This document shows, piece by piece, positions 25,601 through 64,000 of a stretch of 64,000 nucleotides of DNA. The number at the start of each line of letters is the position of its first letter. Position 1 is the first letter of the stretch. Made by a program: the position numbers and the translations under genes. The notes beneath the pieces were generated by a model. That model was given only the letters and a program-made list of their open reading frames with translations, was not told where the DNA came from and searched no databases. This DNA comes from Cladopsammia gracilis. Its lineage: Eukaryota; Cnidaria; Anthozoa; Scleractinia; Dendrophylliidae. The stretch spans positions 1,137,501 through 1,201,500 of the forward strand of contig JAJGOT010000003.1 in the NCBI GenBank assembly GCA_022457155.1, read 5' to 3'.

Positions 25601-28600
25601 TTATATATTACCATGCGAAAGTGCCGTTCGATAGGTTTCGTCTGAATGGCCATCAAACGTTGGAATTTCATCCACACTAGACACAAGGTAGAACCACCTT
25701 GTACAGTATGACTGGACCAATACTACGGGAAAGTTATGCACTGCTCAGCAACTTTCATTTCACTTTAGGGTTTCATCCACATACTCAAATAAAGCTACAA
25801 CTACCTTAAACAGCACGGTAAACAGCATTGAACAGAGTACCGTCAGTGTTACACTGAACAGAGTACTGCTCAATAACATATGCATTTGAACGATCACACT
25901 GTAGGATTTCTCATCCACTGACTCTTCAGTAGTTCTGATGCAAGTATCCTGTTTTCAATCAACGAAACTGCAGATACCGTGAACGATCTATTGCGTCACA
26001 TTGGATCAATACAAACAGTGATAAGCAAAACAGACCACTGCAAGGACCGATCAGACAATGTGAAAAGCATTCTCTCGAAATGGCACTACCGGTCGTCCTT
26101 GCAGTGGTCTGTTTGCTTATAACTGTTTGTATAAGCCTTATCGCCGGAGTTTCGAAAACACATGTGTGCATCGGGATAAAATCCAATATTCATGTCAAAG
26201 TGAACAAAGGAAAGGTAATGAATTCTTATCCCGCCTTATCGCCTTCCTTTGTCAACTTTCAAGTTTTATCCCGACGCGCGCATATATTATCGGAACTCCC
26301 ATAACGCTTAATATTGATCCAATGTGACGCAATAGATCGTTCGCGATATCTGCAGTTTCGTTGATCCTGATTTAACCTGTTTTACCTGTTTACAGGTAAT
26401 CCAAGGACGTTGTTTAGAGGTAACAGTTTAGCAGCAAAATGCATGGAACAGTTCATGAAGGTAACATAACATAATAAACAATACATTTTTTTTCCTTTTC
26501 GAATAGCTTGAGTATCTGGCTCCTGTAATTTTCGCCTCCATTTCGCACTATACCATCAGATGGATCTCAATAGTTATCATTACATTTCGTCCCATGGTGT
26601 TCCTTCGCATTTTGTTGTTCGGGAAGGAAGAACAAGCGACTCTTTATTCTCAAAAATACGTTCATGTTAACTTAAATCGTTAATAGTGACATTCTTTATA
26701 CGCTAAACAGTGAGTGACCGCGCGTCTGTAGACCCTCAAACCCGAGGAATGTTTAGAACCAAATAGGTGATGTCCCCTACTCCGATTTAACCCATCTCGA
26801 GCCAAAAATGAAACTTGTCAAATTCTTCTATACGGCTCACATGTGGCAGCACATACCTATAGAGATGATAAAGGGGAGTGCCCAAACCACTCCCCACCCG
26901 AAAGAGGCAGAATCCCCATTGAGGTCGCACATACCTATACAGCTCGTAAAAGCTGAGGTTCCCCACAGCCCCACCCCAAAAGACGCAGATACAATTCCCT
27001 TTGGGGCCGCAGATAGCTTGCATGGGGGAGTCTCCTGGGATTTTAATACTGTTTCTTTTTCTCCTCAGATTGTGGGTATACCATACCTTTCTGACACGCT
27101 CAAGCCAGTTATCGACAAGATTTTTGAAGAGCATAAATACTGTGAGTTGGACCCAAGTAAAACTGAGCGAAAATCGAGCGCACTTAGGTAAGCCATGTGC
27201 TATAATTGTCTTTTTTGGACGACAACACAAAACAGTCGTAGTAAAGCGGCCTTTACACGACAAACTAAAGTTGGCAAACTCGTGTTGGCAAACACTGAAC
27301 TCCAATTTCGTGTGAAGGCCGCTTAACCAACACAAACAAGTTGGTGAAAACGTTGGCGAGAATAGAGACAAGTTCCATTTGTCGCCAACAGGTTGCCAAC
27401 ACGAGTTTGCCAACTTTAATAGTTTGTCGAAGGCCGCTTGCTTTGAGGTTACTTTCATTTCAAGTTGAAATATGTGTCTTCCCCATCCGGTTCTTAAAAC
27501 CTATTTTTGCCTTTTTCTGTCTACGTTGTTCTTCTTGCGAACTGCATTAATCTTGTGCAAAGATAGGTAAGCCGATCAATGAAAATTAAATAGCCACAAA
27601 GACTTTTCCGGCTAATGCAATGATCTTTATAACCACAACTAAACTCATCGGGCTGGTACGGTGTGACAACCAAAACTGAATAAAACCCTGCTCCGAGGTC
27701 AGCAGGTTAGGCTGAAATCAATCTACCTGGTTGGCTGCTAAAAATATTTAGGTTTCTCGGAAACACAAACCATACGTGGGTGTATATAAAACTAATGATT
27801 TCACAATCTACGGTTCACATTTACGATGGAATCTCTCTTGAAAGACCTCAAAGAACACGTTACATGTGCGATATGTCTGGATACGTTCACCGAGCCCAAG
27901 ACAATCGCTTGCCTCCACACATTCTGCTGTGAATGTTTGAAGAGACACGCTTTAACAACCCAGCAAGAAGGGCAATTTCGCTGCCCCGAGTGCCAGGCAC
28001 AAGTTGGCGTCCCTGAACGCTTCGATCAAATTCCCACTGGTTTTCTCCAGAATAGTTTGCTGGGAGTTCTCGCTGTACAACAAAGTGGTGATGGAAGTGA
28101 GATCAATTGCGGCAACTGCAGAAAAAAGAGCGCTGAGACATGTTTCTGTTTCAACTGCGGAAATTTTATGTGCCCTGACTGTGTAAACGCACATGAACTA
28201 CTGAAAAATGTCGCTTTTGACGGCCATAAAGTCAGATCAACAAAGGACTTTCAAGTCGAAGACTATGAGGCTTTGTTAAAACGAAAATCTTTTTGTTCTC
28301 AACAGTATCATGAGCGAGAGGTGACGCGATTTTTTTGCCTCGAGTGTCAAATTTGTGTTTGTCAGAGCTGTGTAGTCACAGATCACAGGAATCACGCTGT
28401 TGATCCACTTGACAAGGCAGCTGATCGCGAGAAAACCCAAATCATGATGGGAACTGAGCTGATGAAAGAAAAAAACACAATTTGCAGTGATGTGATACGC
28501 GAATTGGAGCAAATAGTTTTTAATCTGGAGACAAACATCGCCACCGCTAAACGTGAAGTTTCCCAAGTAGCCGAGCAAATGATCACGAAGATTCGAGAAC

Positions 28601-31600
28601 ACGAGAGGGAGGCCATTACCGCTCTCGAGATCACGCGCGTGTCGAGAACTGAGAAATTAAACTCTGTAAAGACACAACTGCAGTCCTTGGTCAAGCAAAT
28701 CAATCAAGCAATCGAGTTTGCCGACAATCTGGTTCAAAGAAGCTCCAGCTCAGATATTTTGCAAAGCAAGAAGTCGTTGGAGCAACGAACTGAACATCTT
28801 AACAAGACTCCAGTCCCACCACTTCCGGTTTCTTCCTTTGTGAAGTTTATTTCCACTTCAGAACCAGAGAATGTGACCCTCGGTTTGCTTGCAACCAGTG
28901 AACCAGTTGTGGAAGGACTGACGCAAGATTTTCAAGCCGGCGTAGAAGCGGAGTTTCTCATCTGTTCAAAACTCACAAGAGAAGCTGAAGGCAAAATTCA
29001 CATTGACGTTATCGTGCAACCCGCTGAAGAAGTAGGAAATTTGATGGTTTGCGAGAAAGACGATGGAAATTTCTTGGTGAAGTTTACACCTAAAGTGCCA
29101 GACACTTATAATATTAAAGTAACTATAAACAGGGGTGATCTTCATAAGAGGACTTATACCGTCCAAGTAAAGGAACGACTCCTTGAAGTTGTGGGCGAGC
29201 TAGATTTAAAAGGAATAACACTTCGAACTCCATCTGGGATTGCTGTGAATAGTAAAGGTTTGATCGCTGTTGGTGACTACGATAGCAACCGTATTGTGAT
29301 CTTCGATAAGGACGGAAAGTATCTTCGAAAATTTGGCTGCAAAGGAAAGAACGTTGGACAGCTTAACGGTCCATCGGACGTAACATTTGTCAATGACGGC
29401 AAGATTCTAGTGGCAGATGAGTTGAATCAACGCATTCAGCAGTTCAACATCCACACGGGAAAAGTTGTGAGAGCGTTTGGAAAGAAAGGGACGGGAGAGG
29501 GAGAGCTTCAGGACCCAGGAAGTGTTTGTATGGATGCCGAACGACACGTTGTTGTAGCCGACTGTTCAAACAACAGAATGCAGGTTTTCACAAAGGATGG
29601 TGAACCTGTGTTTAGTTTTGGAGCAAGTGGATCAGAAAAACTCAACCGTCCAACTGGATGTGTTTTTCTCGAAAACACCTTCATTGTTTCTGACGCTAAG
29701 AACCACTGCTTAAAAATCTTCGACAATTCAGGGAAGTTTCTGCGTAAAATTGGAGAACAAGGCAAGGATAACGGACAGTTGTTGCAGCAGCACCCTCTGG
29801 GATTGTGCGTTGAAACATTTGGCAATCATCACAACATTCTCGTTTGTGACCGTAACAATAAACGGATTGTACAGTATACAGTGGACGGTTTACTTACTGG
29901 GAAAACGGTTACTAACTTACTGAATCCCGTTAGAATAGCTTCAACGCCAGATCACAGGATTTTAGTGTCCGATTTTCGAGCGAAAAGAATATATATCCTG
30001 CAATAAGTCGTAAAAAGTTAAATGGATTTAACCCTTTAATTGAGCCCCCCGGGGGGGATTCCGACGGGGGTGCTCGTCGAAACATTTGGGTTTGATGTAC
30101 GCGGCTCAAATGAATTTTTACCCCCAAGATGTACCAAATCTAAAACAACACATCATTTTCTGACATATTTTTTTCGGCGCAATATCCTAACCGCGATATA
30201 ATTCTAACGGTGGTCATGTTATATTTTCGTACCCTAAGCGGTACCAATCTACAAATTTCGACTCCTAAAAGGTACGACGAGCATCCCCGTCATTTTTATA
30301 TGGAAGTCCCTCCGATAATTGAGCTCTCAACTGAGTTAAAAGACGCGCATGATTTACAAAAGCATCACTGAATAGAGACAACCACTCTATGTCACGTGAC
30401 TATAATAATCAAAGACGTTAGTGAAAAAACGATTGTTAGAAACAAAAAGAGCGATCCAAATGATTAGTTAAAGTGTGAAAAGTTAGGCTATATAATTGAA
30501 AGCCTTTTTAAAGTATCAGTAATAACACGATATATAGACCCTTTTCTAGTAGAGGCGTGAGTGTGGAGGGCGGGGACTCTGCCATATCCTATAATCAATA
30601 GCGAAATGTAAAAGAAAAGACTTTTATTATCTTATAGAGCTTTCAAAGTTAGAAGGCAACTTTTTTGCACTATACAGAATTACACACTCCATGTCACGTG
30701 ACTATGATAATTTTAAATAAAAACATAAAGATAGGAATCATTTTGGGAAATAAAAACGATACAGATGATCACTAAACTGGATGATCTTTATATCCAGCCA
30801 TCTTCTTTGAACCTAAATATCCAGTATCCAGTAAACAACACATTCTTGTTTCCAAATGTGTTCCTCGATATCCAAAAAAAAATATTTTCGTAATATGGCG
30901 TATCCCTGTTTTTTTTTTTTTTTTTTTTTTGCCCACATATACCTAGCCTGTTTCAGGCGTTAAGATTGTGGGGCCAGGGAGCAGCGCGAACGAGCGGGGA
31001 AAACGGGGAGAGACTATCCCCTCCAATCTTTCGCTCCCCACTATCTGAACGCCTGGAACAGGCTTATTCCCTTTCCCAATACCTAACCGAAAATGACTTA
31101 CTTCCCAATAAAGCACTAACAAACTTAATCAACTGAACCAACCGAGAATGGTCAATGCCAAAATAGTGAGACTTAAGGGACTGTTTGTGGGCGGCACGGT
31201 GGTCTAGTGGTTAGCGCGTCGAACTTTCAACCTGAAGGTCGGTGGTTCGAAGCCTGGTCTCTGCCGTCGTGTTGTTTCCTTAGACAAGAAACTTTACTCC
31301 ACACTGTCTCTCTCCACCCAGGTGTATAAATGGGTACCGGCGACAAAATGCTGGGGGTAACCCTGCGATGGACTAGCATCCCATCCAGGGGGGAGTAGCA
31401 ATATTCCTAGTCGCTTCATGCTATAGAAACCGGGTTTAAGCTCCGGCCGTTGTGAGCCTACTGGCTCGGGTGCGCGACTTTTAAGGGACTGTTTAAAATA
31501 AAGATGGATGATCCTAGCATTGGGTCTATCCGAGCACGACGTGTTTCCTGCTTTCAGATCCTCATACCACATTTTGTGGTTCCAGCGCTAGGAACAATCT

Positions 31601-34600
31601 AGGTCTACAACCCTTCACATGCAAACTGTAACTGAGCGGAAAACATGACGCGCCCTGCTGATCTGTCTTCGAGGATGAAAAGGCCCATATAATATTTTTT
31701 AGTATTACAATAGCTCCTGCTGAAGGCAGCGCAGCAATAACGCACTTTCCCGCCAAAAATATGAGGAACACCACCTTGTGACGTTCTTTAGAGAATTGTT
31801 CCTTTATCGTTCTCAAAATTATGCATTCACAAAAGAATATGATAAAATTTGTCAGAACCACTGAATTCTCTGGAGTAGAATCACACGATTTGATATTGGT
31901 AAGCAAAATAGCTTAGGTAAAAAAAGGTCTACATTGCAACATCGCCCATTACATATCGCATGGTGTGTCCCAGCTTGAAATCCTTCTCGGTTTAGAATAA
32001 GTCAGTGTAAACAATCAGTGTTGACGTTGAAACGTGAACGTGTCGATGACAATGATTAAAAGCTCAAACGGCTTTATATTATTTCCAGGCGGCTGAGCCT
32101 CAAGCCAGTTGATGAACAAGACAGAAGCTTATCAGTACTAACTGGATACTTAGAAGGTGTCATGACATCCATCTTGAGTTCTTTCAAGGAATGCCCGAGC
32201 TACATGCGCGCAGCCTTCAGAAATCTCGCGAGGCGTGTCTCCGATCATTTTGGGGACGAACCTGGATATGAGGTGAGCTAACCTATGCGGAGAGGACACA
32301 CATTCGCATTTTCATTATATGCAGGGATATTCAAAAAGCAAAATGTCTCTGAAGGGCTAATTTTGGTGGATTTTGACCCGAACTTTGCATTTATCTAACT
32401 GATTCTAAAGCAACACTATAAAACAAACCAAAGAGGAATGTGTATGAACATGCAAGACACAAATAGAAAGGTCCAGACAACTTCAATGTCAACGCGACAA
32501 CCACGAAAATGGGCTCATACGAGTGGTAAAAATTTAGGATTTCATCCTCAAAAGATAAAACTGCATCGTATTTTTAAGGTCAAGGTGAATAACGTCAAAC
32601 GTAAGAACTGAAAGAGTTATGTTGTATTAGCTAAACGTTACAGTGCCTAAATACCCAGAGAAACGAAAACGATATGGTCATGATGGCGTATCAATGAAAC
32701 TAGGCTCAGTCTTGTATTTCATAGTAAAACAGCCCACTCCTTTATCAGATCATAGTCCTATCATAACTTGGCTAAATATCAATACAGAGAATTCTGGTAT
32801 TCTTAAAGGATCACAAAATAATTGTTCAAGGCGTGTACCAAAACAGTTTGTTTGGGAAAATGATTCTACACGGAAATTCAAAGATGTTTTGCGTATCTCC
32901 AGTTCTCCAAACACTAATTCAAGAGTATATAGACGAGGGAACACAAATTCCCGATGTTAACACTTCTCTTCAAAAAGTAGAAAATATTCTTACTACAACT
33001 GCTAGACAATGTTTAAAGATTAAAACCACAAAAAAGCATAAGCGTATCAAGTCATCATCAAACAAAAAATGGTTTGACCGGGAATGTCGATTAAAAAGAC
33101 ATGAATTGAGGAAAATGGCGAACCAAAAACATAGAGATCCGTTGAACTCCGTTTTGCGTGAGAAATACATGTCATTTTAATGCAATGAAAAAGATTATTG
33201 AACTCTAAAAAGAACGAATACTACAATAGCAAGCTTCATAGATTGGAGGAAACTATTGAAAACTCAGATGCGACAAATTTTTGGAAATGTCTAAAATCAA
33301 TGGATGACACCATTAAAGCGGAAGATAATCCTTTAGTGTCAGAAGAAAATTGGCTGCTACACTTTCAATCTCTTCACTCTAATGAACCGCTTAATCCCAC
33401 CCAGCAGATAATCCATGATGAACTAAAAGTAGAAGAAGATCGTAAACAACAATTTCGTCCATTAGATTACTTGATTACCGAAAATGAAATACCAAAGCTG
33501 CCAAAAAGTTAAAGAACAACAAATCTTCTTATTCAGATAAAATTAGAAATGAAATGATCAAAGCTAGTCTTAATGACCTAATGCCTGTTTACTACAAACT
33601 GTTTAATGCAGTTCTAAGTTCAGGTACCATGCCCCAGACATGGTGTGGTGGTCTCATTACACCAATTTATAAATCAGGCGGAAGAAGCGATCCGTCAAAC
33701 TACCGTGGTATCTGTGTTTCAAGCTGTCTGGGAAAACTATTTTGTTCCATTTTAAACCAAAGGCTTCTCGAATATATTGCCTCAAATAATATACTTAACA
33801 AATCACAGATTGGCTTCTTGCCAAATAATCGTACAGCAGACCATGTCTTTACACTTCGAACCTTGATAGACAAATACGTTCATAATCACAATGAAAAAAT
33901 TTATGCTTGTTTTGTAGATTTTAGAAAAGCTTTTGACTCAGTTTGGCACAATGATCTCTTGAATAAGTTATTGCAAAATAATGTAGGAGGCTGCTTTTAC
34001 AATTTAATTAAAAGCCTTTATTCCAAGTCTTCTTGTTCAATAAAAATTGGCCAAAGCCAAACACGACCCTTTCAATACGCGAGAGGTGTACGACAAGGTT
34101 TTATTTTAAGTCCACTACTTTTCAACCTTTACATTAACGATTTACCTTTTTCATTTGAAAATATCCGGTCTGATCCTTTTGTTCTACCAAACGGCACAAA
34201 ATTAAACTCTCTTTTATATGCGGACGATTTAATCATTTTATCACATTCTAAAACAGGTCTACAAAATTGTCTTAATGCATTATCATCATACTGCAACACG
34301 TGGATGTTAAGCATAAATCCAAAAAAAAACCAAGATTATGGTTTTCCAAAAACGCCCAATAAAATGCTCTGAATATAGATTTTATATGAATAATCAAATT
34401 ATTGATGTTGTACAAGATTATACTTATTTAGGAACTAAAATTTCCAAGTCTCACTTGATCATCTAAAAGAGAAAGCACTTCACGCTCTTTTCAGTCTGAG
34501 GCGACGCACAGATTTTAGTAAGCTAAATCCGTCCCTTGCCTGTAAAATTTTTGATACAATGATATCCCCAATTTTGCTCTATAATAGTGAAATTTGGGGT

Positions 34601-37600
34601 GGATATACCAAATCTGATTTTAAGGCTTGGGATAGCTCACAAATTGAAACAACGCATCTTCAGTTTTGTAAACGCTACCTTCAAGTGAGTAATAAGGCTT
34701 CTAATATTGCGTGCAGAGCTGAACTTGGTCGATTTTCTCTAAATATTTCCATTAATCTAAGAATCCTCAACCGACTTGTTATACCTTCAAAATAAACCCC
34801 AAGACTCTTTTGTTAAACAATCTTTCTTAATATCATTAGATCTTCACTCAAATGGTAAAATTAGCTTTCACTCTAATCTTATGAAGATATCCGAATACTT
34901 TAATTTCAGAAATTTTAACCTCGATTTATTAAACACCGCTGAAGTCAAACACTGTACAAATTTAATGAAACAGAAATATATTTCTTATTGGCAACATATA
35001 CTTCAGTACTCTCAAAAACTAGAATTTTATAAGACTTTCAAGAATGAATACACCCCCTCAAATTATCTAGGCCTGACTAGACGAGCATCTGATAGGAGGA
35101 CATTAACTAAATTAAGTATACACCTTATTCCAAAATGGCGGCAGTTTATTATTCTTTTGTATGTATTTCAATTAGCCCTTTTTGCCTCATTTTCGCGTAA
35201 AATTTCTGTTGTATTTTGCACATGCTGTCGAGGCAACAAGGGCTAATTAACATACATATAAAAGAATAATAAATTGACCACCATTTTGGAATAAGGTGTA
35301 TAAGTAATCATAAACTTATGATCGAACTGGGCAGATACAACAAAATTCCAAGAGACAAAAGGCTTTGCCCAGTTTGTGGTTCAAATGAAATCGAAGACGA
35401 AATCCATTTTCTTTTCTATTGCTCAAAATACGCAACAATAAGAGATAATTTTTACAATAAAATACAGACTTTTATACCAAATATTAGCCATTTACCTGTA
35501 ACTGAATTGATCATAGAATTAATGAATTCTTCCATTTACTTTCTAAACATGCAATTAATTAAATTTATTTCATCTTGTTTTGATTCTCGAGATAAAATTG
35601 TCACCAATGTAGTTTAATTATTCATTTTTGTTTTCTTTTCTTTTGTTTGTTAGTTGTAAGCTTTTGCAATATTGTAAAATCTACAGTCATGCAAATAAAG
35701 CTAGATGTTGTTGTTGTTGTTGTTGTATTCTATTCCTGATGCTAAACTTTCCATGTACAAAAAATAAATAAAAACGACCTATTCACACAATTCTGAGCTA
35801 TTGTTTTGTTTTTAAATGAGGTGCCAATTTTCGATTTTCTGCCCTTAAATATGAACAGGGTATAACGGAACACACCTATCCTAAATTGAAGGGAGTACTC
35901 CCTCCCCCCTTCCCCTATCCCAGGAGTCTCCTACACAGTCGTTTTTCGGGACGTCAAACAACGCTTCTTCCCAATGGAGGATCGTTCTGTGACAACCAAA
36001 ATAACGGCTATGTAGGAAACTACGGAACACGAAGCGATAAATCGTTATCGTTATCATCGTTATCGTCCATTTTCAGGATGCAAAGTACACTGCTGTGAGT
36101 GGTTTCCTGTTTCTTCGGTTTTACGCGCCAGCAATTCTCGGGCCCAAACTATTCGGCTTGAGGGAAAACCACGCCGACAAGAATGTATCACGCACACTAA
36201 CTATCCTGGCAAAGGTAAGTATTTCCAGGGTCTAGGCGTACCATAAAGCTCTGTAGATATTGCACTGTCAGAAAATAACGCCGAGGGCATGATAACATAC
36301 TACAAACTTACTCAATAAATTTCAACTTTAGGTTACATCTCATGTCTTGAGATAGAAACGGCAACTTCAGGAAAGATATTATAATGAAAGGCGAGGCAAG
36401 TTTGAATTGAAATTCATTCATCGCAAGGTCAACAAAATAATGATCACGTGGTCATTTTTAACTGAAAAAGAAACCAAGGTCGTGTGCAACGGACTGCATT
36501 AAAAGGAACTTTCATTCTAGAGAATGTCTGGCATCAATGCAGTCCTTTAGTGTCGCTATATTATGATCATGTATTTTTTCTACTGTTTGCAGACAGTCCA
36601 GAAGATTGGAAACATTGAGTTCCCTCAGCATTGCGGAAAGGAAGAATGGATGGGACCACTGTACAAGTGGATCGCATTTTACACAGACGAAGTCAAAGAC
36701 TTTTTGGATAGGCTCGCTGATGTGGAAGACGAAGAAGGTAACCATGACAACTGTCTGTCAAACAATGTCTGTTCACTATGAACTATCAACACATCCAACG
36801 TAAACAGTAGTCAAGATAAAATTATGAAGTAGTTCAGCTGGATACCTTAAGATGTAATGAATATGCAAGATGACGTATGCCACACGTCATCTTGAATACA
36901 TAGTATAGTAAGACGCTACGGTAACCTTCTTAAACTTCTTGGAACTCGATTTCACCTAATTAAACGATTTCTTTACGTAGCCTTGTATATTTAGTTCCAG
37001 GCTGTGACCACAGGCGAACTGTGTTCAGTCAGTCACTGATCATCAAGGAAGGTTCCGTTAAGAAGTGTCGCTACAGGGATTCCAGGCTGCCAAAACCATA
37101 CAAGTTCAAAAAGCGCTACTGTTGGCTGAGCACGGAAAACTTCCTTTACGCGAAAACAAATGATTCACAGGTAAGCAGAAGGGTTCGTACGGGACTGCGA
37201 TATGTTACGAAAACTGCGCACCACTCTGAGGATGAAATGAGTTATACAACTGAATTGTGTTATCATTTGTGGGATGAACCATCATAACCTGAAGCCGCTC
37301 ATGAGCAGTTGTGTTTTCTTTCCCAGACAAGGCAATTTCTACCGACAAGAAAAATTCTTGCAATTGAGCGAGTTGACGAGTCAGCGTTTCAGAAGCCAAA
37401 CGTATTCCAAGTGGTCAGTAAAGATTACGAAGACACCGTTCAAATCCTCTATCTTGCCGCGCAGGTAAGCACATCCCTGGTCCAATTAATTGTGCAAATG
37501 AACATACACATATATTTTGAATAATTTTGAATTGTTTACTTTTATTCAGGATGTAAATGAAATGAATCAGTGGCTATCAGCGATAAGGAAAACGACAATT

Positions 37601-38859: not shown

Positions 38860-41440
38860 CATAAAATATCATGAATTTCAGCAAAGCTAGTTCAGCAGTA
38901 TCTTTTATAAAGTTAATATATATTTACTTGACAAAATAAAAGAGGATTATATTAGAGAATATGCATATCATTTATTTGTTGTCTTTTTGTTTCTTTTCTT
39001 TTAAGATATCAAAACAATCTTTCTCAATCTTAAGGTGGTTCACCTAGATTTTGTGGCTTAACTACATCCCAACTGTAAAGGGCAGATCGCTCACTGTGTG
39101 AGCTCGGTCGGGCAAGTTGCTTCATTGGTTTGATGGACATCGATGTAACCATAGCAACGAACCGATGACTTCATGGTTTTTGCATATCAGCAATTTTCTC
39201 GACATCTAGACCTTAACTTTTAAAACGACATATTAGGCTAGATGTATGTCTCAAGTCTGCAAAGTTTGAAAAAAATACTATTGAGCGTTTTCGAAAAAAT
39301 TTTGAATATTATCCAGCAATTTTTTTAAGCCGATTCGCCTTACTCTTTGTTAATTCGTCGATGCAAGAGAGGATGAACTAAGAGAACAAATCCCCCATAC
39401 ATGAGCCTCTTTCAATGATAATTTTTTCAATCTATTTTTAGCGCGTAGTCATACTGCACGGCTATTTTAAGGAAGACACCTGATTGGTCAGTTGTAATGA
39501 CGTAATAAAATTTAAGAGTTGGCGACATTTCTGTTCTGGGACCCGTTTCTCAAAGGTCCCGATAACTTTTCAAGCCCGGAGCTAGAACAAAAAAATCTCA
39601 CCTTCGCTTAATTTCACGTTCTTGTCTTTGTTCCTTTATACTCGCAGATTCCCCGCTGCTTACAGTTCCGTTTTTTTCAGAAACTGACGAAGCTTTTCTC
39701 AGTCGAATGCTCATCGCGCTCGGAATGACAAAACACACGGAGAAACGCGATCACATCTTTCGCAGTTCGATTTACGATTTTAGTGAATGTTGGACGTCAA
39801 CACGACGGCGACCACGACGGCGGGAAAAATCTTCGCAATGACATATCATCCTCTGATCATTGGCCGCGCGACCATGGGGACGAGAACTAAAATAACTTTC
39901 ACCGCGTGGCGCGAAGCTTAAAATAGATTGAAAAAACTATCATGGGGCATGGGGATGTGTTCTTTTAGTTTATCCTCTCTTGGTAGAAGCTAGTGTTTTC
40001 TTGACAAATTTAAACAATATTTTCATATTATACCTGTGGGCAGGAGGCCATCTTAATGGGTTCCTGCTGTGGCATAAAACTACTTTTCTTGAAGGTTTAA
40101 TCCAGTTTGCTTTTATTAGTGTGATCAAAAGCAATGTCATAACCTCATTATACTCAGAGAAGTAATGTCTTTGTTACACAAGCTTTTATAAAAAAACTAA
40201 TGGATGGAATTTCTTTAAACACACGCATGATGCGTCAATGAAACCTTTGAAGACGAATGAATAGTCCCCTATACTTTTATGTTTATTTCGCGCCCTAAAA
40301 ATGCTTCATTGGATTTGCGTGCGAAATTTGCAGAGACAGTCCTGGAGACAGTGCATCACACCGGTTAGATTTCAGATCAAAAGATTTCATTTTTTCTTCC
40401 TCAAAGGAGCGTTCTAGTGCTGGGGCCGCGCGTTTCGCGACATCGATAGGAATTCAAAATCAGAAGCATCGACAAAAATTCCAATAATTCCGAAATCGTA
40501 CAAAGTGTAGAATGAACATAAACGGACACGAGAACAACAAAGAACTGTGGAATCAATGCGGCATGCACCGAGGAAACCCGTGATGAATTTTCATTCAAGT
40601 GAAGTGGCTCCAGCGTGGTGAATTTTTGCAACAAAAACAATCACAGCGTAAATTTCATTGGCAATGTGAGTAAAACAATTGGCTCAATAACAATAACAAT
40701 AACAATAACAATAACAATACTTTATTTAATGTGGTGCATACTCTTAGATATACTCTTAGCTTTAAGATGTGTGTTTATCAAGTTATGATACACTTGAGAA
40801 GTTTGGAGAACACTCAAGAAGCTATGTACAAGCTAAGCTCAAACCTCTTTTCAAATTTTCATCTTGGACTACGACTAGTCTCGCTTGCCCCGACACACGC
40901 GCGAGAAGGAGAAACCAGATTTCTTCTTCACGCCCGCGCGCTACGTGTCCTCGCGACTGTCTATTTTCGTGCGCAATCACGAGATTCGCACGAGTCGTAA
41001 TCCGGTTCTAATAATGTGCCAAATCTCAAATACTAAATCAGGCAGAGGTCAGCAAATACAATAGTATTGTAAAGCTGCCAAGGTCTTGATAAACCATATT
41101 TTCTGTTGGGTGTCGTGTTGCAAGAAGGCAGGGGAGGGATGAGTCCGCTAAAGTCACAAACGGATTTGTCTTCCCGCCCCCTCCAATATTTACCCTCTTC
41201 CTTCAGCTCCTCTATCAAAACTCAGTGCAGTCATACATGCAATTATTGCCCTGACTATGACTGACTATCCAGCCCCGCTAAACCAAATTATGTTCCAATT
41301 TTTTTTTTTTAAATTGAACATAAAACATGCTCGGTATCGTCTTCACGATATACAATTTGTTAAATTGTAGCGCGTCTCCTTATCCACCTCATCTTGACCT
41401 GGTTCCCCAGTTTCAGACAATCCCCTGTTTTCCTTATAAT
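38860..41440. other. 3' flank of unit 1, no gene seen
   Basis: This intergenic stretch is duplicated at about 51390-54520. It begins with a TTAAGGTGGTTCACC phrase (39030s) that could be a decayed TTAA-element end. It includes the (AATAAC)n microsatellite and CpG-rich patches near 39830 and 40430. No coding sequence is supported. Confidence 0.5.
40686..40719. repeat. (AATAAC)n microsatellite
   Basis: About five to six hexamer repeats; the unit 2 counterpart near 53100-53119 has about three. Confidence 0.85.
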
Positions 41441-41662
41441 CCAGGTCGTTAACAAGGTGTAGAAACCAGCGCACTGATGTGACAATCCGGCAAACCTCCT
41501 CCTCCGAGGTCAGAGGCCAGTCAGTAATAACATCCAGTTGGTTGGCTGCTTAAATTAGCACAAAAGCTATCATATTCAGATTTCTCGGAATCACAAACAA
41601 TGCATGGGTGTGTTTCATAAACTCGTCAGTGATTTCACAATCTAAGGAGCGTATTTTAAACC

Positions 41663-46538: not shown

Positions 46539-47159
46539 GCCCCTATTGAGTCGCTTGAAGCTAGCGCAGCAATCACGATCTAAGCCAAGGCAATGCCTTT
46601 TATTTTCGCTTCGTTTAGAATTCGCATGTATCTTAGCCACTGCTTGTTGACATTGAACATTTGCGTAATGAAAGATACCACACCACTTATCATGGTTATT
46701 ACCCCCTTGACTTCTATTTGCCGCCAAGTTTTAACTTATAAAAAGAGTTCAAAATTCAAGTTATGACAAGTCAGGTCTAACTCAAGAAACGAAAGAGTTC
46801 ACCAAGTGCGTTGTGGATGATGCAGAGTTCAGATGACTTTAACAAAAGAGATCCACCTTTCCAATCACCCTGTTCGATGTGGCATAACATATTACTTACA
46901 CGATACCCGCACCAGCAGCCATTACTAGCTAAGAAATGCCAAAAATTGTTGTGATACGATAAATAAGTCCTTTTGTTAAGGATTCAAAGTATACAGCCGT
47001 GAGTGATTTCCTGTTTTTTCAGTTGTGTGCGCCGGCAATTCTCAGACCCAAGCTCTTCGATTTAAGGGAAAACCATATCGACGTCCTGGTCTCACTGACA
47101 CTATAGTCGCTTCTCATGTCCTCAGACATGCCTTGTATCCCTGGTAAGAAGCCCTCTGT

Positions 47160-48946: not shown

Positions 48947-49034
48947 TGCTGCAAACGTGCACTCAGACAAGGTTAGTACAACTGATCACATGCTGCAAAC
49001 GTGCACTCAGACAAGGTTAGTACAACTGATCACA
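48947..49034. repeat. Duplicated exon-17-donor unit (unit 2)
   Basis: Two 44-bp copies of TGCTGCAAACGTGC...GTTAGTACAACTGATCACA, each with an AAG/GTTAGT donor. Equivalent to 37661-37748. Confidence 0.9.
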
Positions 49035-54739: not shown

Positions 54740-56920
54740 ATGGAATCTCTCTTGAAAAACCTAAAAGAACACGTAACATGTTCGATTTGTTTGGATACGT
54801 TCACCGAGCCCAAGACAATCGCCTGTCTCCACACATTCTGCCGTGAATGTTTGAAGAAACACGCTTTAACAACCCAGCGACAAGGAGATTTTCGCTGCCC
54901 CGAGTGCCAGGCACAAGTCGGCGTCCCTGAAAGCTTTGATCGATTGCCCACTGGTTTTCTCCAGAATAGTTTGCTGGGACTTCTCGCTATACAACAAAGT
55001 GGCGATGGAAGTGAGATCAGTTGCGGCAACTGCAGAAAAAAGAGCGCTGAGACGAGCTTCTGTTTCAACTGCGCAAAATTTATGTGCCCGGACTGTGTAA
55101 ATGCACACGAACTACTAAGAAATATCGCATTTGACGGCCACAAAATCAGACCAATTAAACACTTTCAAGCAGAAGACTACGAAGCCTTGCTAAAACGGCA
55201 GTCTTTTTGCACTCAGCAGTACCACGAGCGAGAGGTAACAAGATTTTTTTGCCTCGAGTGTCAAACTTGTGTTTGTCAGGTTTGCGTAGTCACGGATCAC
55301 AGAAGTCATGCTGTTGATCCACTTGACAAGGCAGCTGATCGCGAGAAAACCCAAATCATGACGGGAACTGAGTTGATGAAAGAAAAAAGCAAAATTTGCA
55401 GTGATGTGGTACGCGAATTTGAGCAAACAGTTCTTAATCTGGAAACTTGCATCGCCACTGCTAAACGCGAAGTTTCCCAAGTAGCCGAGCAAATCATTAC
55501 GACGATTCGAGAACGCGAGCGGGAGGCCATTACCGCACTCGAGATAACGCGCGTGTCGAGAACTGAGAAATTAAACTCCGTGAAGATACAAGTGCAGTCC
55601 TTGGTCAAGCAAATCAACCAAGCAATCGAGTTTGCCGACAATCTGGTTCAAAGAAGCTCCAGCTCAGATATTTTGCAAAGCAAGAAGTCGTTGGAGCAAC
55701 GATTTGAAGATCTTAACAAAACTCCAGTCCCACCACTTCCGGTTACTTCCTTTGTGAAGTTCATCTCTACTTCTGAACCAGAGAATTTGAACCTCGGTCT
55801 CATCGCAACCAATGAACCAGTTGTAGAAGGGCTGACACAAGATGTCCAAGCCGGTGTAGAAGCAGAATTGATAATTTATCCAAAACTGACGAGTGAAATT
55901 CAAAAGAAAATTCGCGTTGACGTTCTCGTGGAACCTGCTGAAGAAGTAGGAAGTTTGATGATTACTGAAAAAGAAGATGGAAATGTCCTGGTGAAGTTTA
56001 CACCTAAAGTGCCAGGCACTTATAACATTCAAGTGACTTTTAACGCGGGCAATATTCAGAAGAGTATTTTCACTGGACATGTCAAGGTAAAGGAACGACG
56101 GCTTGAAGTTGTGGGAGAGTTGGATTTGAAAGGAGAAACTCTTCATAATCCATATGGTATTGCTGTGAACAGTGAAGGGCTCACCGCTGTTACTGACTAC
56201 AATGGTCACTGTATCCTGTTATTCGATAAAGAAGGAAAATATATACGAAAATTTGGCTGCAAAGGAAGTAATGTTGGGCAGCTTAACACTCCAGGTGACA
56301 TAACATTTGTTAATGACAACGAGATTCTAGTTTCGGATGAGTTTAATAACCGCATTCAGCAGTTTAATGTCAACACTTGGAAAGTTGTGAATGCTTTTGG
56401 AAGGAAAGGGACGGGAGAAGGCGAGCTTTGGAATCCAGCAGGCGTTTGTGTGGATGATGAAGGACGCGTTGTTGTTTCCGATTACTTAAACAACAGAATG
56501 CAGGTTTTCACAAAGGATGGTGAACCTGTGTATTGTTTTGGAGCAAGTGGCTCAGGAAAACTTAACAGCCCCAATGGATGTACTTTTCACGAAAACACCT
56601 ACATTGTTTCTGACACTAAGAACCACTGCTTAAAAATCTTCGACTATTCAGGGAAGTTTCTGCGTAAGATTGGAGAACGAGGCCAAGGTAACGGACTGTT
56701 GGATAGACCTAATGATTTGTGCGTTGAAAAAAGTGGCAACCATCACAACATTCTTGTTTGTGACCATGACAATCAAAGAATCGTACAGTTTACAATGGAA
56801 GGTTCATTCACAGGAAAAACTGTTACTAAGCTTCAAACACCTGTTCGAATAGCTACAACGCCAAATGGAAGGATTTTAGTGTCCGGTTATCGCGCGAAAA
56901 AAATATATATCCTACAATAA
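54740..56920 (+). CDS. TRIM-NHL E3 ubiquitin ligase, copy 3, intact
   Basis: An intronless 726-residue frame with the same domain order as copy 1: C3HC4 RING (C14 to C56 all present), B-box 1, B-box 2, coiled coil, filamin-type fold and a full NHL propeller. It resembles truncated copy 2 much more than copy 1 (shared ASLKA-like shadows, shared VFTGHVKVKERRLE linker, shared 41461/54541 upstream DNA). The start lies in a strong context (ACCATGG). The TATA box of copy 1 is missing at the aligned place, so if expressed it uses another promoter. Role as for copy 1, an E3 ligase with a substrate- or RNA-binding propeller. Substitutions cluster in the NHL part, which could mean changed ligand choice; this is inference. 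Confidence 0.9.
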   Translation: MESLLKNLKEHVTCSICLDTFTEPKTIACLHTFCRECLKKHALTTQRQGDFRCPECQAQVGVPESFDRLPTGFLQNSLLGLLAIQQSGDGSEISCGNCRKKSAETSFCFNCAKFMCPDCVNAHELLRNIAFDGHKIRPIKHFQAEDYEALLKRQSFCTQQYHEREVTRFFCLECQTCVCQVCVVTDHRSHAVDPLDKAADREKTQIMTGTELMKEKSKICSDVVREFEQTVLNLETCIATAKREVSQVAEQIITTIREREREAITALEITRVSRTEKLNSVKIQVQSLVKQINQAIEFADNLVQRSSSSDILQSKKSLEQRFEDLNKTPVPPLPVTSFVKFISTSEPENLNLGLIATNEPVVEGLTQDVQAGVEAELIIYPKLTSEIQKKIRVDVLVEPAEEVGSLMITEKEDGNVLVKFTPKVPGTYNIQVTFNAGNIQKSIFTGHVKVKERRLEVVGELDLKGETLHNPYGIAVNSEGLTAVTDYNGHCILLFDKEGKYIRKFGCKGSNVGQLNTPGDITFVNDNEILVSDEFNNRIQQFNVNTWKVVNAFGRKGTGEGELWNPAGVCVDDEGRVVVSDYLNNRMQVFTKDGEPVYCFGASGSGKLNSPNGCTFHENTYIVSDTKNHCLKIFDYSGKFLRKIGERGQGNGLLDRPNDLCVEKSGNHHNILVCDHDNQRIVQFTMEGSFTGKTVTKLQTPVRIATTPNGRILVSGYRAKKIYILQ

Positions 56921-56929
56921 AAAGCAAAA

Positions 56930-58230: not shown

Positions 58231-58234
58231 ATTT

Positions 58235-58471: not shown

Positions 58472-58521
<50 letters not shown>

Positions 58522-58571
58522 AGCCAAATATTTTCCCATCCGGCCCTCCCACTTAGTCAATAAGTACATAT
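58235..58571. mobile_element. Unit 3-specific insertion with a GC-rich hairpin
   Basis: Unit 2 reads straight through here (TTAGATTAATTAAATTAG near 45296). The insert holds repeated CGTACGGCCCT phrases and a long palindrome at about 58424-58563 (TTATTGACTAAGT, GGGCCGGATGGGAAAATATT and their complements). Confidence 0.75.
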
Positions 58572-59709: not shown

Positions 59710-60319
59710 GCCCCTATATTGAGTCGCTTGAAGCCAGCGCAGCAATCACGATCTAATCCAAGGAAATGCGTGTTAATTTCGCTTGGTTTAGAATTCGCAT
59801 GTATCTTAGCCACTGCTTGTTGACATTGAACATTTGCGTAATGAAGGATACCACACCACTTATCATGGTTATACCCCTTGACTCCTGATTGCCGCCAAGT
59901 TCTAAGATATAAAAAGAGTTCAAAATTCAAGTTATTACAAGTCAGGTCTAACTCAAGAAACGAAAGAGTTCACCAAGTGCGTTGTGGGTGATGCATAGTT
60001 CAGATGACTTTAACGAGAGAGATCCACCTTTCCAATCACCATGTTCGATGTGGCATAACATATTAATTACACGATACCCGCACCAGCAGCCATTACTAGC
60101 TAAGAAATGCCAAAAATTGTTGTGATACGATAAATAAATCCTTTTTAAAAGGATTCAAAGTATACAGCCGTCAGTGATTTCCTGTTTTTTCATTTGTATG
60201 CGCCGGCAATTCTCAGACCCAAGCCCTTCGATTTAAGTGAAAACCATGTCGACGTCCTGGTCTCACTGACACTATAGTCGCTTCTCATGTCCTCAGACAT
60301 GTCTTGTATCTCTGGTAAG

Positions 60320-60574
60320 AAGTCCGCGTCACGAAGTTGTATTATATATTAATCATTTTGGACAGTTGAAACGAGATACCTATCGGTTTTGTTTGTACAG
60401 TGACATTTAGTTGATTGGCATTTGAACCTTTCAATCTAGGGCGTATATACACGCAAGTAATTAGTGCAGTTTAAGTACGAATCGATCGCTTCAAAGGTAA
60501 AGGTGTAAATAGTGCACAAATCGAATAAACGAATTTCAATTTACGAACTTCGGTAATGGCGCCCAACGTGGGGC
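60320..60574 (+). mobile_element. LTR fragment with primer-binding site (unit 3)
   Basis: Counterpart of 47160-47460. The primer-binding site TGGCGCCCAACGTGGGGC is at 60557-60574. The left part and the last bases of the LTR differ by small deletions. Confidence 0.6.
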
Positions 60575-61172
60575 AGTAAATCACGACCTTGGGGTCTAGG
60601 GGTACCATAAAGCTTTGCAAATATTGCAATGTTAGAAAATAATGCCGAGGGCATGACAGAACTCACTTACTCAATAAATTTCAACTTTAAGTTACATCTC
60701 ATGTCCAAATAGAAACGGCAACTTCACGAAAGGTATTATAATGATAAGGGAGGCAAGTTTGAATTGAAATTCATTCACCGCAAGGTCAGCATAAGAGTGA
60801 TCACGTGGCTATTTTTTAACTGGAAAAGAAACTAACGTCGTGTGCAACGGACCTTTAATTCTAGAGAATGTCTGGCATCATGAACGTATCCTTTAGTGTC
60901 GCTATATTATGATCATGGATTTCTTCCACTCTTCGCAGACAGTCCAGAAGATTGGAAACATTGAGTTCCCTCAGCATTGCGGAAAGGAGGAATGGATGGG
61001 ACCACTGTACAAGTGGATCGCATTTTACACAGACGAAGTCAAAGACTTTCTGGAAAGGCTCGCTGATGTGGAAGATGAAGGTAACCATGACAACTGTCTG
61101 TCAAACAATGTCTGTTTACTACGAACTATCAACACATCCAACGTAAACACTAGTCAAAATAAAATTATGCAG

Positions 61173-61455
61173 TAGTCCAAGGAATGACCACGATCTTCGT
61201 TGCGAATATGACGTCCCGAGACAACTCACACGTGAGACCGCTTTCTAGAATAATCACGGGCTTGACATTTTAAACTGAGTAATGGCGGCCGGATTTTCGG
61301 TGGTTTTCGGCGGTTTTCGGCCAGTAATTTCTAGATTCAGTCAGCTTATATCGTTCTAAATTATAGCGATTTATGTTATTATGAACTCATTGGATAAACT
61401 GAAGTAAAAAAAAAGTCGAAAAGAAAGACAAAAAATTTCGTCGTAGTACCACTTT
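61173..61455. mobile_element. Unclassified insertion in intron 14''
   Basis: About 280 bp not present at the matching site of unit 2 (near 48092-48105). It holds a GGTTTTCGGCGGTTTTCGG short repeat and an A-rich stretch near 61407. No clear termini. Confidence 0.5.
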
Positions 61456-61594
61456 AAGATGTAATGAATATGCAAGATGACGTGTGCCACACGTCATCTC
61501 GAATACCAAGTAAGACGCCACGGTAACACAGTGTCCTTCTTAAAATTCCTGGAAGTCGACTTCACCTAATTAAACGATTTCTTTACCTACGTCA

Positions 61595-61907
61595 CAGGAC
61601 GAAATAATGAATTTACTAATCTTTAAGACAATATTAAATTTTACTTAAAGGTATCGAAAATCTTTAAGTTGAGACGTAAATACTCTTAAATGTATTAAAG
61701 TAAGTAGGTATCTTTAAAATGTGTTTAAGAACATTTAAGTTATCTTTAATTCAATTTTTCAACAACTTAAAGGCAACTTAAATTGTTCATAACTTGCTTT
61801 AAGTGTTGTCAAGTATAGGCTTATTTAAGTAATAACGGTGCATAGTCGAAATTGTTCGTTAAATTTTCTTTACCTTTACTTGCACTTAAAATCGTTATTT
61901 CGTCCTG
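61595..61907. mobile_element. CAGGACGAAAT MITE full of CTTTAA motifs, unit 3 only
   Basis: The ends CAGGACGAAATAA and TTATTTCGTCCTG are inverted. The interior has more than ten CTTTAA/TTAAAG-like motifs in both orientations. Unit 2 has the uninterrupted site (TTTACGTACCC near 48230). Confidence 0.8.
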
Positions 61908-62192
61908 CGTACCCTTGTATATTTAGTTCCAGGCTGTGACCACAGGCGAACTGTGTTTAGTCTGTCACTAATCATCAAGGAAGGTTACGTCAAGAAGTGT
62001 CGCTACAGGGATTCCAGGCTGCCAAAACCATACAAGTTCAAAAAGCGCTACTGTTGGCTGAGCACGGAAAACTTCCTTTACGCTAAAACAAATGATTCAC
62101 AGGTAAGCAGAAGGGTCCGTTCGGGACTGCGATATGTTACGAAAACTGCGCACCACCACTGAAAGCAACATCTCGAAGGATGAAATGAGTTA

Positions 62193-62591
62193 GGGGCCGA
62201 TTACATGGCGAATTTCAGCCCGGGCTGAGATTTCAGCCCGGTCAACCGGGCTGAAATTTCGTTGTGATTACATGACAAATTTCAGCCCGGGCGCCAAGTT
62301 TGAAATTGAGCGGGAAAATTGATAACGAGAATCAAAATGGCGTCACTGCGCATGCCGAAATTCACTTTTCAGCCCGGGCTGAAATTCTGATGCGATTACA
62401 TGGCGAATTTCAGCCCGTTTGGCCGGGCTGAAAATTCCAGCCCGGTTTCTGAAACCGGGCTGGAATTTTCAGCCCGGGCTGAAACTTTGTTCATGTAATC
62501 GCTAACTTCATTTTAAGAGGATTTATTTCGGAAGCCGGGCTGAAATCTCAGCCCGGTCAACCGGGCTGAAATTCGCCATGTAATCGGCCCC
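62193..62591. mobile_element. PIF/Harbinger-like MITE with TTA target duplication, unit 3 only
   Basis: It is flanked by TTA (62190-62192, 62592-62594), with inverted ends GGGGCCGATTACATGGCG and CGCCATGTAATCGGCCCC. The interior is many CAGCCCGGGCTGA phrases. Units 1 and 2 show the empty site GAGTTATACAAC. Confidence 0.88.
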
Positions 62592-62654
62592 TTATACAAC
62601 TGAATTGTTTTATCATTTGTGGGATGAAGCATCATAACCTGAAGCCGCTCATAA

Positions 62655-62972
62655 CCATTATTTGTTTATTTAATTGACGTGTGCATTTAGTTCGTTAAAT
62701 AACGTCTTAATTTCACTTTGCATTATTTTCCTTACTTATTTGTGTTGTCCGTGACTGTGCTCACATTGTGGGTGGCTCCTCCTAAAATGTTTTGCAATTG
62801 GTATAGGATTTAATGGAGCCGTAACCAATTGTAGAATTGCACACATTTACGACACAGAGTAGAATTGTGAACAGTTACCTTGTGAGTAGAATTGTGAACA
62901 GTTACGACACAGAGATATATATTTTTTTAGCAACTACTGTGATTTGCAGTCTGTCCATTTGAATTGAATAAT
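62655..62972. mobile_element. Unclassified insertion with an internal minisatellite, unit 3 only
   Basis: It splits CGCTCATAA/TCAGTTGTG of unit 2 and is bordered by ATAA on both sides. It contains about three copies of a GTAGAATTGTGAACAGTTAC-like unit near 62831-62915. Confidence 0.6.
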
Positions 62973-63327
62973 CAGTTGTGTTTTCTTTCGCAGACAAGGC
63001 AATTTCTACCGACAAGAAAAATTCTTGCAATTGAGCGAGTTGACGAGTCAGCTTTTCAGAAGCCAAACGTGTTCCAAGTGGTCAGTAAAGATTACGAAGA
63101 CACTGTTCAAATCCTCTATCTCGCCGCGCAGGTAAGCACATCTCTTGTCCAATTAATTGTGCAAATGAACATACACATATATTTTGAATAATTTTGAATT
63201 GTTTACTTTTATTCAGGATGTAAATGAAATGAATCAGTGGCTATCAGCGATAAGGAAGACGACAATTTCCAATCCCAAAATACTGAGCTATTTCCACCCG
63301 GAAGTGTTTCACAAAAATAAGTGGACA

Positions 63328-63459
63328 TGCTGCAAACGTGCACTCAGACAAGGTTAGTACAACTGATCACATGCTGCAAACGTGCACTCAGACAAGGTTA
63401 GTACAACTGATCACGTGCTGCAAACGTGCACTCAGACAAGGTTAGTACAACTGATCACA
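63328..63459. repeat. Exon-17-donor unit in three copies (unit 3)
   Basis: Three 44-bp copies of TGCTGCAAACGTGC...GTTAGTACAACTGATCAC, each with an AAG/GTTAGT donor; units 1 and 2 have two. Confidence 0.9.
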
Positions 63460-63584
63460 TGCTCGACCATTTACCTCATTGCAGGAAATCAGAGATTTAA
63501 CTCTGTGGTAAAATGTCCTACTGAGTGTTAACCCCAATAAGCAAAGGCGGAAAACACGAGGAAAAGAAAAATATAATTGACCTC

Positions 63585-63585
<1 letters not shown>

Positions 63586-63620
<35 letters not shown>

Positions 63621-64000
63621 TTACATACATGTTTTTATTAAACTTTACATAACTTACTTACATTGATTCACGAATTACATCATTATACTAACAGTATTTA
63701 CATCACTTGCTATACTAAGTACATTATTTACAAGCGATACTTACACATCTGACTACTCACATTACTTATTTACACAGTTAATAACAATGGTGAAAAAAGG
63801 GGTTTAAAAACATTGTGCCAGTCATTACAGGGCATTTTCGCCAACTTCTACTGAAGGATATTGCTACAGGAGGAGGGGAAGGAGGGGAACGGAGGGGGGG
63901 GGGGGGGATCTCTTACCAAAGAGTGTCTAGGAGTTTCCATTTTTTTGGGGAGAGTGTCACCCGCTTTGACTTCGATTTCATAAATTGTTTTAAGGTATCG
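63586..64000 (-). mobile_element. Antisense retro-insertion starting with poly(T)
   Basis: A run of 30 T (63586-63615) breaks sequence that continues in unit 2 (TTGACCTTGAACCC near 49139). Read on the minus strand this is a poly(A) tail, with AATAAA-like TTTATT on the plus strand near 63635. The body runs past the window and is not recognised; a 15-G run lies near 63893-63907. Confidence 0.55.

What the first reader, a model, noticed from the sequence alone, without database searches (positions are those of the whole stretch)
27650..64000. Tandem triplication of a TRIM-NHL gene together with the 3' half of a RasGAP gene
The unit boundaries cut through a host gene. The nested TRIM gene and RasGAP exons 12-18 were copied downstream twice, giving three intronless TRIM genes interleaved with three RasGAP 3' ends on one strand. 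Seen: TRIM starts at 27826, 41663 and 54740; exon 14 copies at 36593, 47840 and 60939. Inference: unit 1 gave rise to a second unit, which then duplicated again, since units 2 and 3 share features absent from unit 1.
Basis: seen in the sequence. Interest (0 to 1): 0.85.

Follow-up and report, generated by a model that had tools for sequence, protein, structure and literature searches.

The report
Coral TRIM array carrying RASAL1 fragments
In what appears to be a stony-coral genome, a ubiquitin-ligase gene that sits inside an intron of a signalling gene has been copied head to tail many times, dragging broken pieces of its host gene along, while the residues on its presumed target-binding face seem to have been changed by natural selection from copy to copy.

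Summary
The repeats are real, but the "triplication" is the start of a larger array cut off by the window edge. Fetched downstream sequence shows 13 same-strand intronless TRIM-NHL copies (10 of 13 open) and 10 RASAL1 3' ends over 261 kb. The RasGAP gene is RASAL1-like with 18 exons; copy T1 lies in intron 11. They look like passengers.

The TRIMs look like the selected cargo. RING and B-boxes are constrained (pN/pS 0.19, 0.13). Blade positions equivalent to zebrafish LIN41's RNA contacts are hypervariable: 14 codons give 2.29 against 0.64 for the rest of the NHL domain, a 24-codon class 1.95 (bootstrap 1.31-3.39) against 0.56. Two of three other TRIM clades and a second array in this genome agree. 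LIN41's basic residues are not kept, so the ligand is open.

Best reading: tandem E3 ligases diversifying a recognition face, with RASAL1 exons as hitch-hikers. Ligand, expression and immune role are inferred.

The parts
16698..27188 (+). RASAL1-like gene, exons 1-11 (approximate, from protein alignment: 16698-16766, 16954-17010, 18295-18411, 19869-20036, 21228-21272, 22270-22389, 23183-23311, 24324-24422, 25162-25431, 26392-26463, 27066-27188; exon 11 by splice sites 27069-27187)
   Evidence: tblastn with P0121 (832 aa); splice borders of exon 11; named homologs are rasGAP-activating-like protein 1
27826..30006 (+). TRIM copy T1, 726 aa, in RASAL1 intron 11 (RING, two B-boxes, coiled coil, filamin, NHL propeller)
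   Evidence: ORF; Pfam
32089..32272 (+). RASAL1 exon 12, present once only
36077..38624 (+). RASAL1 exons 13-18 of the intact gene R1 (36077-36214, 36593-36737, 37001-37170, 37327-37464, 37550-37685, 38287-38624)
   Evidence: AG/GT borders and continuous frame; RasGAP, PH and BTK in Pfam
33189..35614 (+). reverse-transcriptase element remains in RASAL1 intron 12 of unit 1
   Evidence: PF00078 8.6e-37 on the 33554-34372 ORF; neighbouring open frames
41005..41497 (+). segment upstream of T2, shared with the stretch upstream of T3 (54074 on) and in part with later copies, not seen upstream of T1
41663..43843 (+). TRIM copy T2; a stop at codon 679 (43697-43699) removes the last 48 residues
46976..51149 (+). 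RASAL1 fragment R2: exon 13 remnant 46976-47075, exon 14 47840-47996, exon 15 48251-48425 (frameshifted), exon 16 48598-48754 (+19), exon 17 48836-48971, exon 18 50812-51149
54740..56920 (+). TRIM copy T3, 726 aa, intact
56105..56917 (+). NHL beta-propeller of T3 (codons 456-726) holding the 24 hypervariable face positions
   Evidence: model pLDDT about 74-98 per 10-residue block; pN/pS
60150..63352 (+). RASAL1 fragment R3: exon 13 remnant 60150-60253; exons 14-17 open at 60939-61080, 61933-62102, 62994-63131, 63217-63352; exon 18 lies outside the window

Best explanation
A tandem array of TRIM-NHL E3 ligase genes at a RASAL1 locus. SHOWN: 13 TRIM copies and 10 RASAL1 3' ends on one strand over 261 kb; the first TRIM lies in intron 11 of the only complete RASAL1; 10 of 13 TRIM ORFs are open. 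INFERRED history: an old segmental duplication copied the TRIM plus RASAL1 3' exons (exon 12 lost in the ancestor of the downstream units), and unequal crossing-over and gene conversion then multiplied and shuffled the units. INFERRED function: the RASAL1 fragments are passengers without exons 1-12, hence without roughly the first two thirds of the GAP domain; the TRIMs are the selected cargo. Their RING and B-boxes are conserved, while positions at the start of strand A and in the BC loop of each of the six NHL blades, equivalent to LIN41's RNA contacts, evolve under diversifying selection. Different copies would therefore ubiquitinate or regulate different ligands, as expected of a recognition or defence repertoire. 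Ligand (protein or RNA) and immune role are not shown.
For: Array. RASAL1 model. Fragment damage: (R2-R9: exon 12 absent in 8 of 8; exon 13 absent or disrupted in 6 of 8); R10 keeps exons 16-17 only. TRIM constraint by domain among T2-T11 without T8: (RING 0.19, B-box 0.13, coiled coil 0.35, filamin 0.55, NHL 0.73). Face: of 14 LIN41 RNA contacts (PMC5908797, passage) 13 fall on P-1, P+1, D+1 or D+2 and one on P-2; those 14 codons pN/pS 2.29 versus 0.64, 24-codon class 1.95 versus 0.56; 0 of 10,000 random sets of equal size reach either pN. Four disjoint pairs of copies: 24-class 2.38, Fisher p 0.006; 14-class 2.63, p 0.045; bootstrap of the 24-class over codons 1.31-3.39. Intact copies plus T12: 1.88 versus 0.55. 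Fold: best PDB match is LIN41 filamin-NHL. Linkage elsewhere: TRIM P0006 and RASAL1 exon 18 P0241 both list a contig of 864,969 bases.
Against: No expression data. LIN41's basic contacts are not kept (net -2 to +1 at the 14 sites, LIN41 +7), so LIN41-like RNA binding is not predicted. In RASAL1 copies exons 17+18 show pN/pS 0.22, and exon 14 length is unchanged or changed by a multiple of three in 7 of 8 copies, which is odd for dead passengers. Clade C (4 proteins, a recent group) shows a weaker excess that random sets reach in 559 of 10,000 (0.146 versus 0.071). The 24-codon class was defined after I had seen which columns vary; the 14-codon class comes from a published structure but falls to 1.52 with intact copies plus T12. 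Other codons vary too: 9 of the 18 most variable codons of the protein belong to the 18-codon core class, the rest do not. No codon-model likelihood test was possible; pN/pS is a counting method and the copies exchange sequence. Species names of the compared records are unknown.
Confidence: 0.68

Rival explanations
1. The RASAL1 fragments are functional: alternative 3' terminal exon sets spliced onto RASAL1 exons 1-12, or short PH-BTK proteins.
For: Exons 17+18 pN/pS 0.22 among R2, R3, R4, R5, R7; exon 14 length unchanged or changed by a multiple of three in 7 of 8 copies; R3 exons 14-18 all open with AG/GT borders; R7 and R8 keep a good exon 13.
Against: Exons 1-12 found in none of the copies; frame, stop, insertion or splice damage in exon 15 or 16 of R2, R4, R5, R7, R8, R9; the first 400 bases after the stop codon are about as conserved as exon 18 (mean divergence among R2, R3, R4, R5, R7 0.029 against 0.025), so recent exchange can explain the similarity.
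Confidence: 0.12
2. The variable NHL face reflects relaxed constraint, not positive selection.
For: Whole-NHL pN/pS is below 1 (0.73); 3 of 13 copies are broken; copies may be redundant; clade C shows no significant excess.
Against: The face exceeds 1 with a bootstrap lower bound of 1.31; the same positions vary in clades A and B and in a second array while other NHL positions stay constrained.
Confidence: 0.17
3. Assembly artefact: haplotypes or repeats wrongly joined into tandem units.
For: Tandem arrays are hard to assemble; two 5,000-base N runs lie in the downstream part; no reads were available.
Against: Pairs among T2-T11 (T8 left out) differ by dS 0.064-0.194, and units carry different insertions; no near-identical second copy of the T2 segment on another contig among 40 scored candidates (best 89%); no N inside the window; in another genome record one contig length is listed for both genes.
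Confidence: 0.05
4. Simple serial triplication, unit 1 to 2 to 3.
For: T2-T3 are closer to each other (92.8%) than to T1, share upstream sequence and pair in the protein tree (94/71).
Against: 13 copies, not three; T3 is nearer T7/T10 in the DNA tree (95/95); mosaic fragments.
Confidence: 0.03

Closest known systems
TRIM71/LIN41, TRIM2/3, Brat, Mei-P26 (TRIM-NHL proteins)
   Same: RING, B-boxes, filamin and NHL, long helix and six-bladed propeller in the model; best structural match LIN41 filamin-NHL 6fpt/6fq3
   Different: Those are single developmental RNA regulators (general knowledge and PMC5908797, PMC9070667 passages); here there are at least 13 intronless tandem copies whose LIN41-contact-equivalent positions are hypervariable and not basic
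Expanded B30.2/SPRY TRIMs (finTRIM, TRIM5-type 'group 2')
   Same: Lineage-specific expansion of TRIM ligases with selection on the C-terminal recognition domain: group 2 dynamics in PMC2533329 (passages); finTRIM seen only as a reference title inside PMC3503706
   Different: The recognition domain here is an NHL propeller; by PMC2533329's definition (group 2 = SPRY) NHL TRIMs fall in the slowly evolving group 1
Tandemly duplicated genes of stony corals (PMC10236652)
   Same: Tandem amplification, 29.9% and 32.6% of genes in two species (passages)
   Different: Its main text has no occurrence of TRIM, NHL, tripartite or B-box as whole words; host-gene hitch-hiking was not in the passages shown
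TRIM56 (antiviral, NHL-like RNA-binding C-terminus; PMC6623546)
   Same: E3 ligase whose NHL-like region binds viral RNA and is needed for restriction (passages); a precedent for an NHL-type defence sensor
   Different: One human gene in that paper; ligand of the coral proteins unknown
RASAL1 (GAP1-type RasGAP)
   Same: R1 encodes a RasGAP, PH and BTK C-terminus and aligns over 18 exons to an 832-aa homolog with a C2 domain
   Different: Nine downstream 3' fragments, none complete

Membership tests
TRIM (RBCC) E3 ligase | N-terminal RING | tested here: met
   PF13445 and PF00097 above cut-off in T1, T2, T3
TRIM (RBCC) E3 ligase | B-box zinc finger(s) | tested here: met
   PF00643, two stretches in each of T1, T2, T3
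TRIM (RBCC) E3 ligase | coiled coil | tested here: met
   one long helix 199-305 in the T3 model, pLDDT about 58-73 over most of it; no coiled-coil program was run
TRIM (RBCC) E3 ligase | ubiquitin ligase activity | not testable with these tools
   needs an assay
TRIM-NHL | filamin and six NHL blades | tested here: met
   PF01436 in T1, T2, T3; filamin PF00630 above cut-off in T2 and T3, just below it in T1 (26.6 of 26.9 bits); six four-stranded blades in the T3 model
LIN41-type RNA stem-loop binder | basic RNA-contact residues kept | tested here: not met
   14 equivalent sites net -2 to +1 in ten copies (T1-T11 without T8) against +7 in LIN41
RASAL1 (R1) | RasGAP, PH, BTK in order | tested here: met
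   Pfam on the exon 11-18 peptide
RASAL1 (R1) | N-terminal C2 domain(s) | tested here: inconclusive
   exons 1-8 align to P0121, whose C2 scores 81 bits; the window's own spliced N-terminus was not scanned
RASAL1 (R2-R10) | complete coding region | tested here: not met
   exons 1-12 not found, lesions in the rest
Innate immune recognition repertoire | induction by, or binding to, pathogen ligands | not testable with these tools
   no expression or binding data

The most novel reading that the evidence does not exclude
Stony corals run a germline-encoded recognition system built on the NHL propeller: large tandem families of intronless TRIM-NHL ligases share a constant ubiquitin-ligase end and carry a variable six-blade face, four positions per blade, at the spots where LIN41 touches RNA. 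Different copies bind different viral, microbial or self ligands, in the way that B30.2 TRIMs do in vertebrates. The RASAL1 locus is one nursery of such genes, and conversion among copies keeps reshuffling the face.
Probability: 0.4. Interest if true: 0.85.

Novelty: new variant of a known kind. Interest (0 to 1): 0.62.

Why it matters
Tandem gene amplification in corals is known in outline (PMC10236652, passages), but what the copies are selected for is mostly inferred from domain names. Here the variation falls on a named molecular surface, at positions fixed by a crystal structure, so the hypothesis is testable: express NHL domains of several copies and ask what each binds. If true it would add an NHL-based counterpart to the B30.2 TRIM recognition families in a non-bilaterian animal. 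The RASAL1 hitch-hikers are also a clear case of partial host-gene fragments multiplied together with a nested gene, useful for dating the array and a warning for gene annotation.

Tried and rejected
Rejected: exactly three copies. Rejected: exon 12 in the copied unit. Not supported: a second haplotype of the T2 segment on another contig. Considered and not adopted: RASAL1 fragments as working genes (rival 1). Considered: young serial duplication; the DNA tree and the mosaics do not fit.

Led nowhere: exon-14 peptide against PDB (no hit); RASAL1 DNA in phage records (no match, as expected). The own-genome search for RASAL1 exon 18 did not complete, so whether such fragments lie on other contigs is unknown; the PF00616 search gave 12 matches, 3 on C802 and 9 on six other contigs, the nine not followed up. 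In one search the loci L001-L008 were read on the wrong strand and that part was discarded; one search is the corrected one, in which the main count uses L001, L004, L005, L006; L002 (covering only blades 1-2 in part) enters the second count, and L003, L007, L008 were left out. Clade A was counted with 14 of its 15 tree members (P0072, partial, left out). T8 and T13 were left out of all codon counts, T12 enters only; T2 was used with its stop codon masked and left out. Literature: 7 searches answered; their listings showed no report of selection on the NHL face or of a TRIM-RASAL1 array, but only open-licence papers are held and I opened six of the papers, by passages only (seven papers in all with PMC2533329).


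Full report
WHERE. The window is G000:C802:1137501-1201500 of an 878-Mb, 1,469-contig genome. The closest TRIM relatives are unnamed; those with names come from stony corals (Porites, Montipora, Oculina), as do the closest named RASAL1 relatives (Oculina, Porites, Montipora, Orbicella). That this is a stony coral is therefore an inference. Coordinates above 64000 below are window coordinates carried on (C802 position minus 1137500).

THE OBSERVATION. TRIM starts and exon-14 starts are exactly as stated. The host gene is RASAL1-like: a protein of 832 aa (P0121) lays out 18 exons from 16698 to 38624; exons 11-18 join into one open frame of 455 aa with AG/GT borders and score RasGAP, PH and BTK. 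T1 lies in intron 11, same strand. Exon 12 (32089-32272) occurs only once in the 294 kb looked at.

THE ARRAY IS LARGER THAN THE WINDOW. 230 kb of downstream sequence give TRIM copies at 27826, 41663, 54740, 73530, 106417, 122368, 138341, 162823, 169019, 212293, 216795, 265543 and 286939. Order with RASAL1 3' ends: T1 R1 T2 R2 T3 R3 T4 R4 T5 R5 T6 R6 T7 T8 T9 R7 R8 T10 T11 R9 T12 R10 T13, all +. Two 5,000-base N runs (255001-260000, 280001-285000) may hide more. Open TRIM frames: 10 of 13; T2 stops at codon 679, T8 breaks after 372, T13 after 189 residues. The upstream side beyond the window was not read.

RASAL1 FRAGMENTS. Of R2-R9, 8 of 8 lack exon 12; exon 13 is absent (R5) or carries disrupting changes (R2, R3, R4, R6, R9), and is good in R7 and R8; exon 15 or 16 has frame, stop, insertion or splice damage in R2, R4, R5, R7, R8, R9 (R7's exon 15 is split by about 5 kb); R6 has a broken exon 18; only R3 is open from exon 14 to 18. 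R10 keeps exons 16-17 only. The first part of the GAP domain is missing from the copies (exon 13 starts at about two thirds of the Pfam profile); that exon 10 carries the arginine-finger loop is recalled knowledge of RasGAPs, not a test here. Copies are mosaics: R2 and R7 differ by 0.3% in the intron-17/exon-18 stretch but by 8-11% around exon 14, the mark of unequal exchange. Results against the passenger reading: exons 17+18 pN/pS 0.22 among R2, R3, R4, R5, R7, and exon 14 length unchanged or changed by a multiple of three in 7 of 8 copies. Since the first 400 bases after the stop codon diverge as little as exon 18 (0.029 and 0.025), recent exchange is my preferred account, but it is not proven.

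HISTORY. In the protein tree (T8 left out) T1 pairs with P0007 (100/100), and T2-T11 sit with P0001-P0006, P0073 and P0083. So the T1/T2-type split looks older than the split between these genomes, with local expansion in at least two. P0001, P0003 and P0004 list one contig length (1,069,771), so that record also has several copies together. This rests on a length coincidence.

SELECTION. Pairwise counting among T2-T11 without T8: RING 0.19, B-boxes 0.13, coiled coil 0.35, filamin 0.55, NHL 0.73. The NHL of T3 is modelled as six four-stranded blades at high confidence; the N-terminal half of the model is poor. The closest solved structures are zebrafish LIN41 filamin-NHL, free and with RNA. 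The LIN41 paper (PMC5908797; passages only) names 14 RNA-contacting residues. Aligned to T3 they fall on P-1/P+1 (start of strand A) or D+1/D+2 (BC loop) in 13 of 14 cases, the other on P-2: by topology, one face. These 14 codons give pN/pS 2.29 against 0.64 for the rest of the domain; all 24 such positions 1.95 against 0.56; 0 of 10,000 random sets of equal size reach either pN. Sliding an 18-codon version of the pattern by 1-12 residues lowers pN from 0.353 to 0.186 or less. With four disjoint pairs the 24-class has 62 non-synonymous and 7 synonymous differences, pN/pS 2.38, Fisher p 0.006; the 14-class 2.63, p 0.045; bootstrap of the 24-class 1.31-3.39. With the intact copies and T12 the 24-class is 1.88 and the 14-class 1.52, against 0.55 for NHL outside the 24. 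I first noticed the columns in alignment A1, so only the 14-class is fixed from outside. Other codons vary as well: 9 of the 18 most variable codons are in the 18-codon class.

REPLICATION. Clade A (14 of 15 tree members): mean pairwise difference 0.773 in the 24-class, 0.159 elsewhere in NHL, RING 0.038. Clade B (6): 0.740 and 0.148. Clade C (4, a recent group): 0.146 and 0.071, reached by 559 of 10,000 random sets. Four copies of a second array in this genome (C1192): 1.26 against 0.23, mainly in blades 4-6.

WHAT IT MAY DO. RING and B-boxes suggest working ligases. The top face of NHL domains binds RNA in Brat and LIN41 (PMC9070667, passages; PMC5908797, passages), but the LIN41 basic residues are lost here (net -2 to +1 against +7), though the 24 face positions are mildly basic (+1 to +5). 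Protein ligands are as likely as RNA. A recognition role, perhaps in defence, is inferred from selection, copy number and the TRIM56 precedent (PMC6623546, passages).

NOVELTY. PMC11639872 (passages) notes NHL-repeat and B-box orthogroups expanded in merulinid corals; PMC10236652 (passages) describes pervasive tandem duplication. The listings of the seven searches answered show no report of selection on the NHL face. Hence a new variant of a known kind.

Noticed in passing
Genome-wide: NHL repeats are very abundant: 150 repeat matches scored of 1,548 first-look candidates, with dense groups on C1192, C232, C751, C965; relatives of T2 at 72-75% identity sit in groups on C99, C322, C378, C1411, C1267.
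   Followed up: partly
after exon 17 in R3, R5, R6, R8, R9 and R10 (e.g. 130880-131135); one imperfect repeat also visible in R1 at about 37700-37740: The last 36 matched bases spanning the end of exon 17 and its splice donor recur at 44-base steps, six further times in R6; each repeat carries a possible donor site.
   Followed up: no
R2, R3, R4, R5, R7, exons 17-18: pN/pS 0.22 in copies that look dead; recent exchange with the working gene R1 is my guess, not proven.
   Followed up: partly
exon 14 of R2, R4, R5, R9: The same in-frame 9-base repeat (Asp-Phe-Leu) is in all four, and R2 and R9 share a further 3-base insertion although they are far apart, a sign of exchange or shared descent.
   Followed up: no
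18649-19384 and 21285-22012: Direct repeat of about 735 bases at 93% in RASAL1 introns, another copy inverted at 124874-125599; probably a mobile element.
   Followed up: no
255001-260000 and 280001-285000 (window-extended): Two runs of exactly 5,000 N in the downstream array: assembly gaps or withheld stretches.
   Followed up: no
G000:C869:7280-18292 and C1352:286743-289008: Further TRIM copies at 88-89% to T2 on other contigs, either more of this array or a moved piece; whether RASAL1 exons lie beside them was not read.
   Followed up: no
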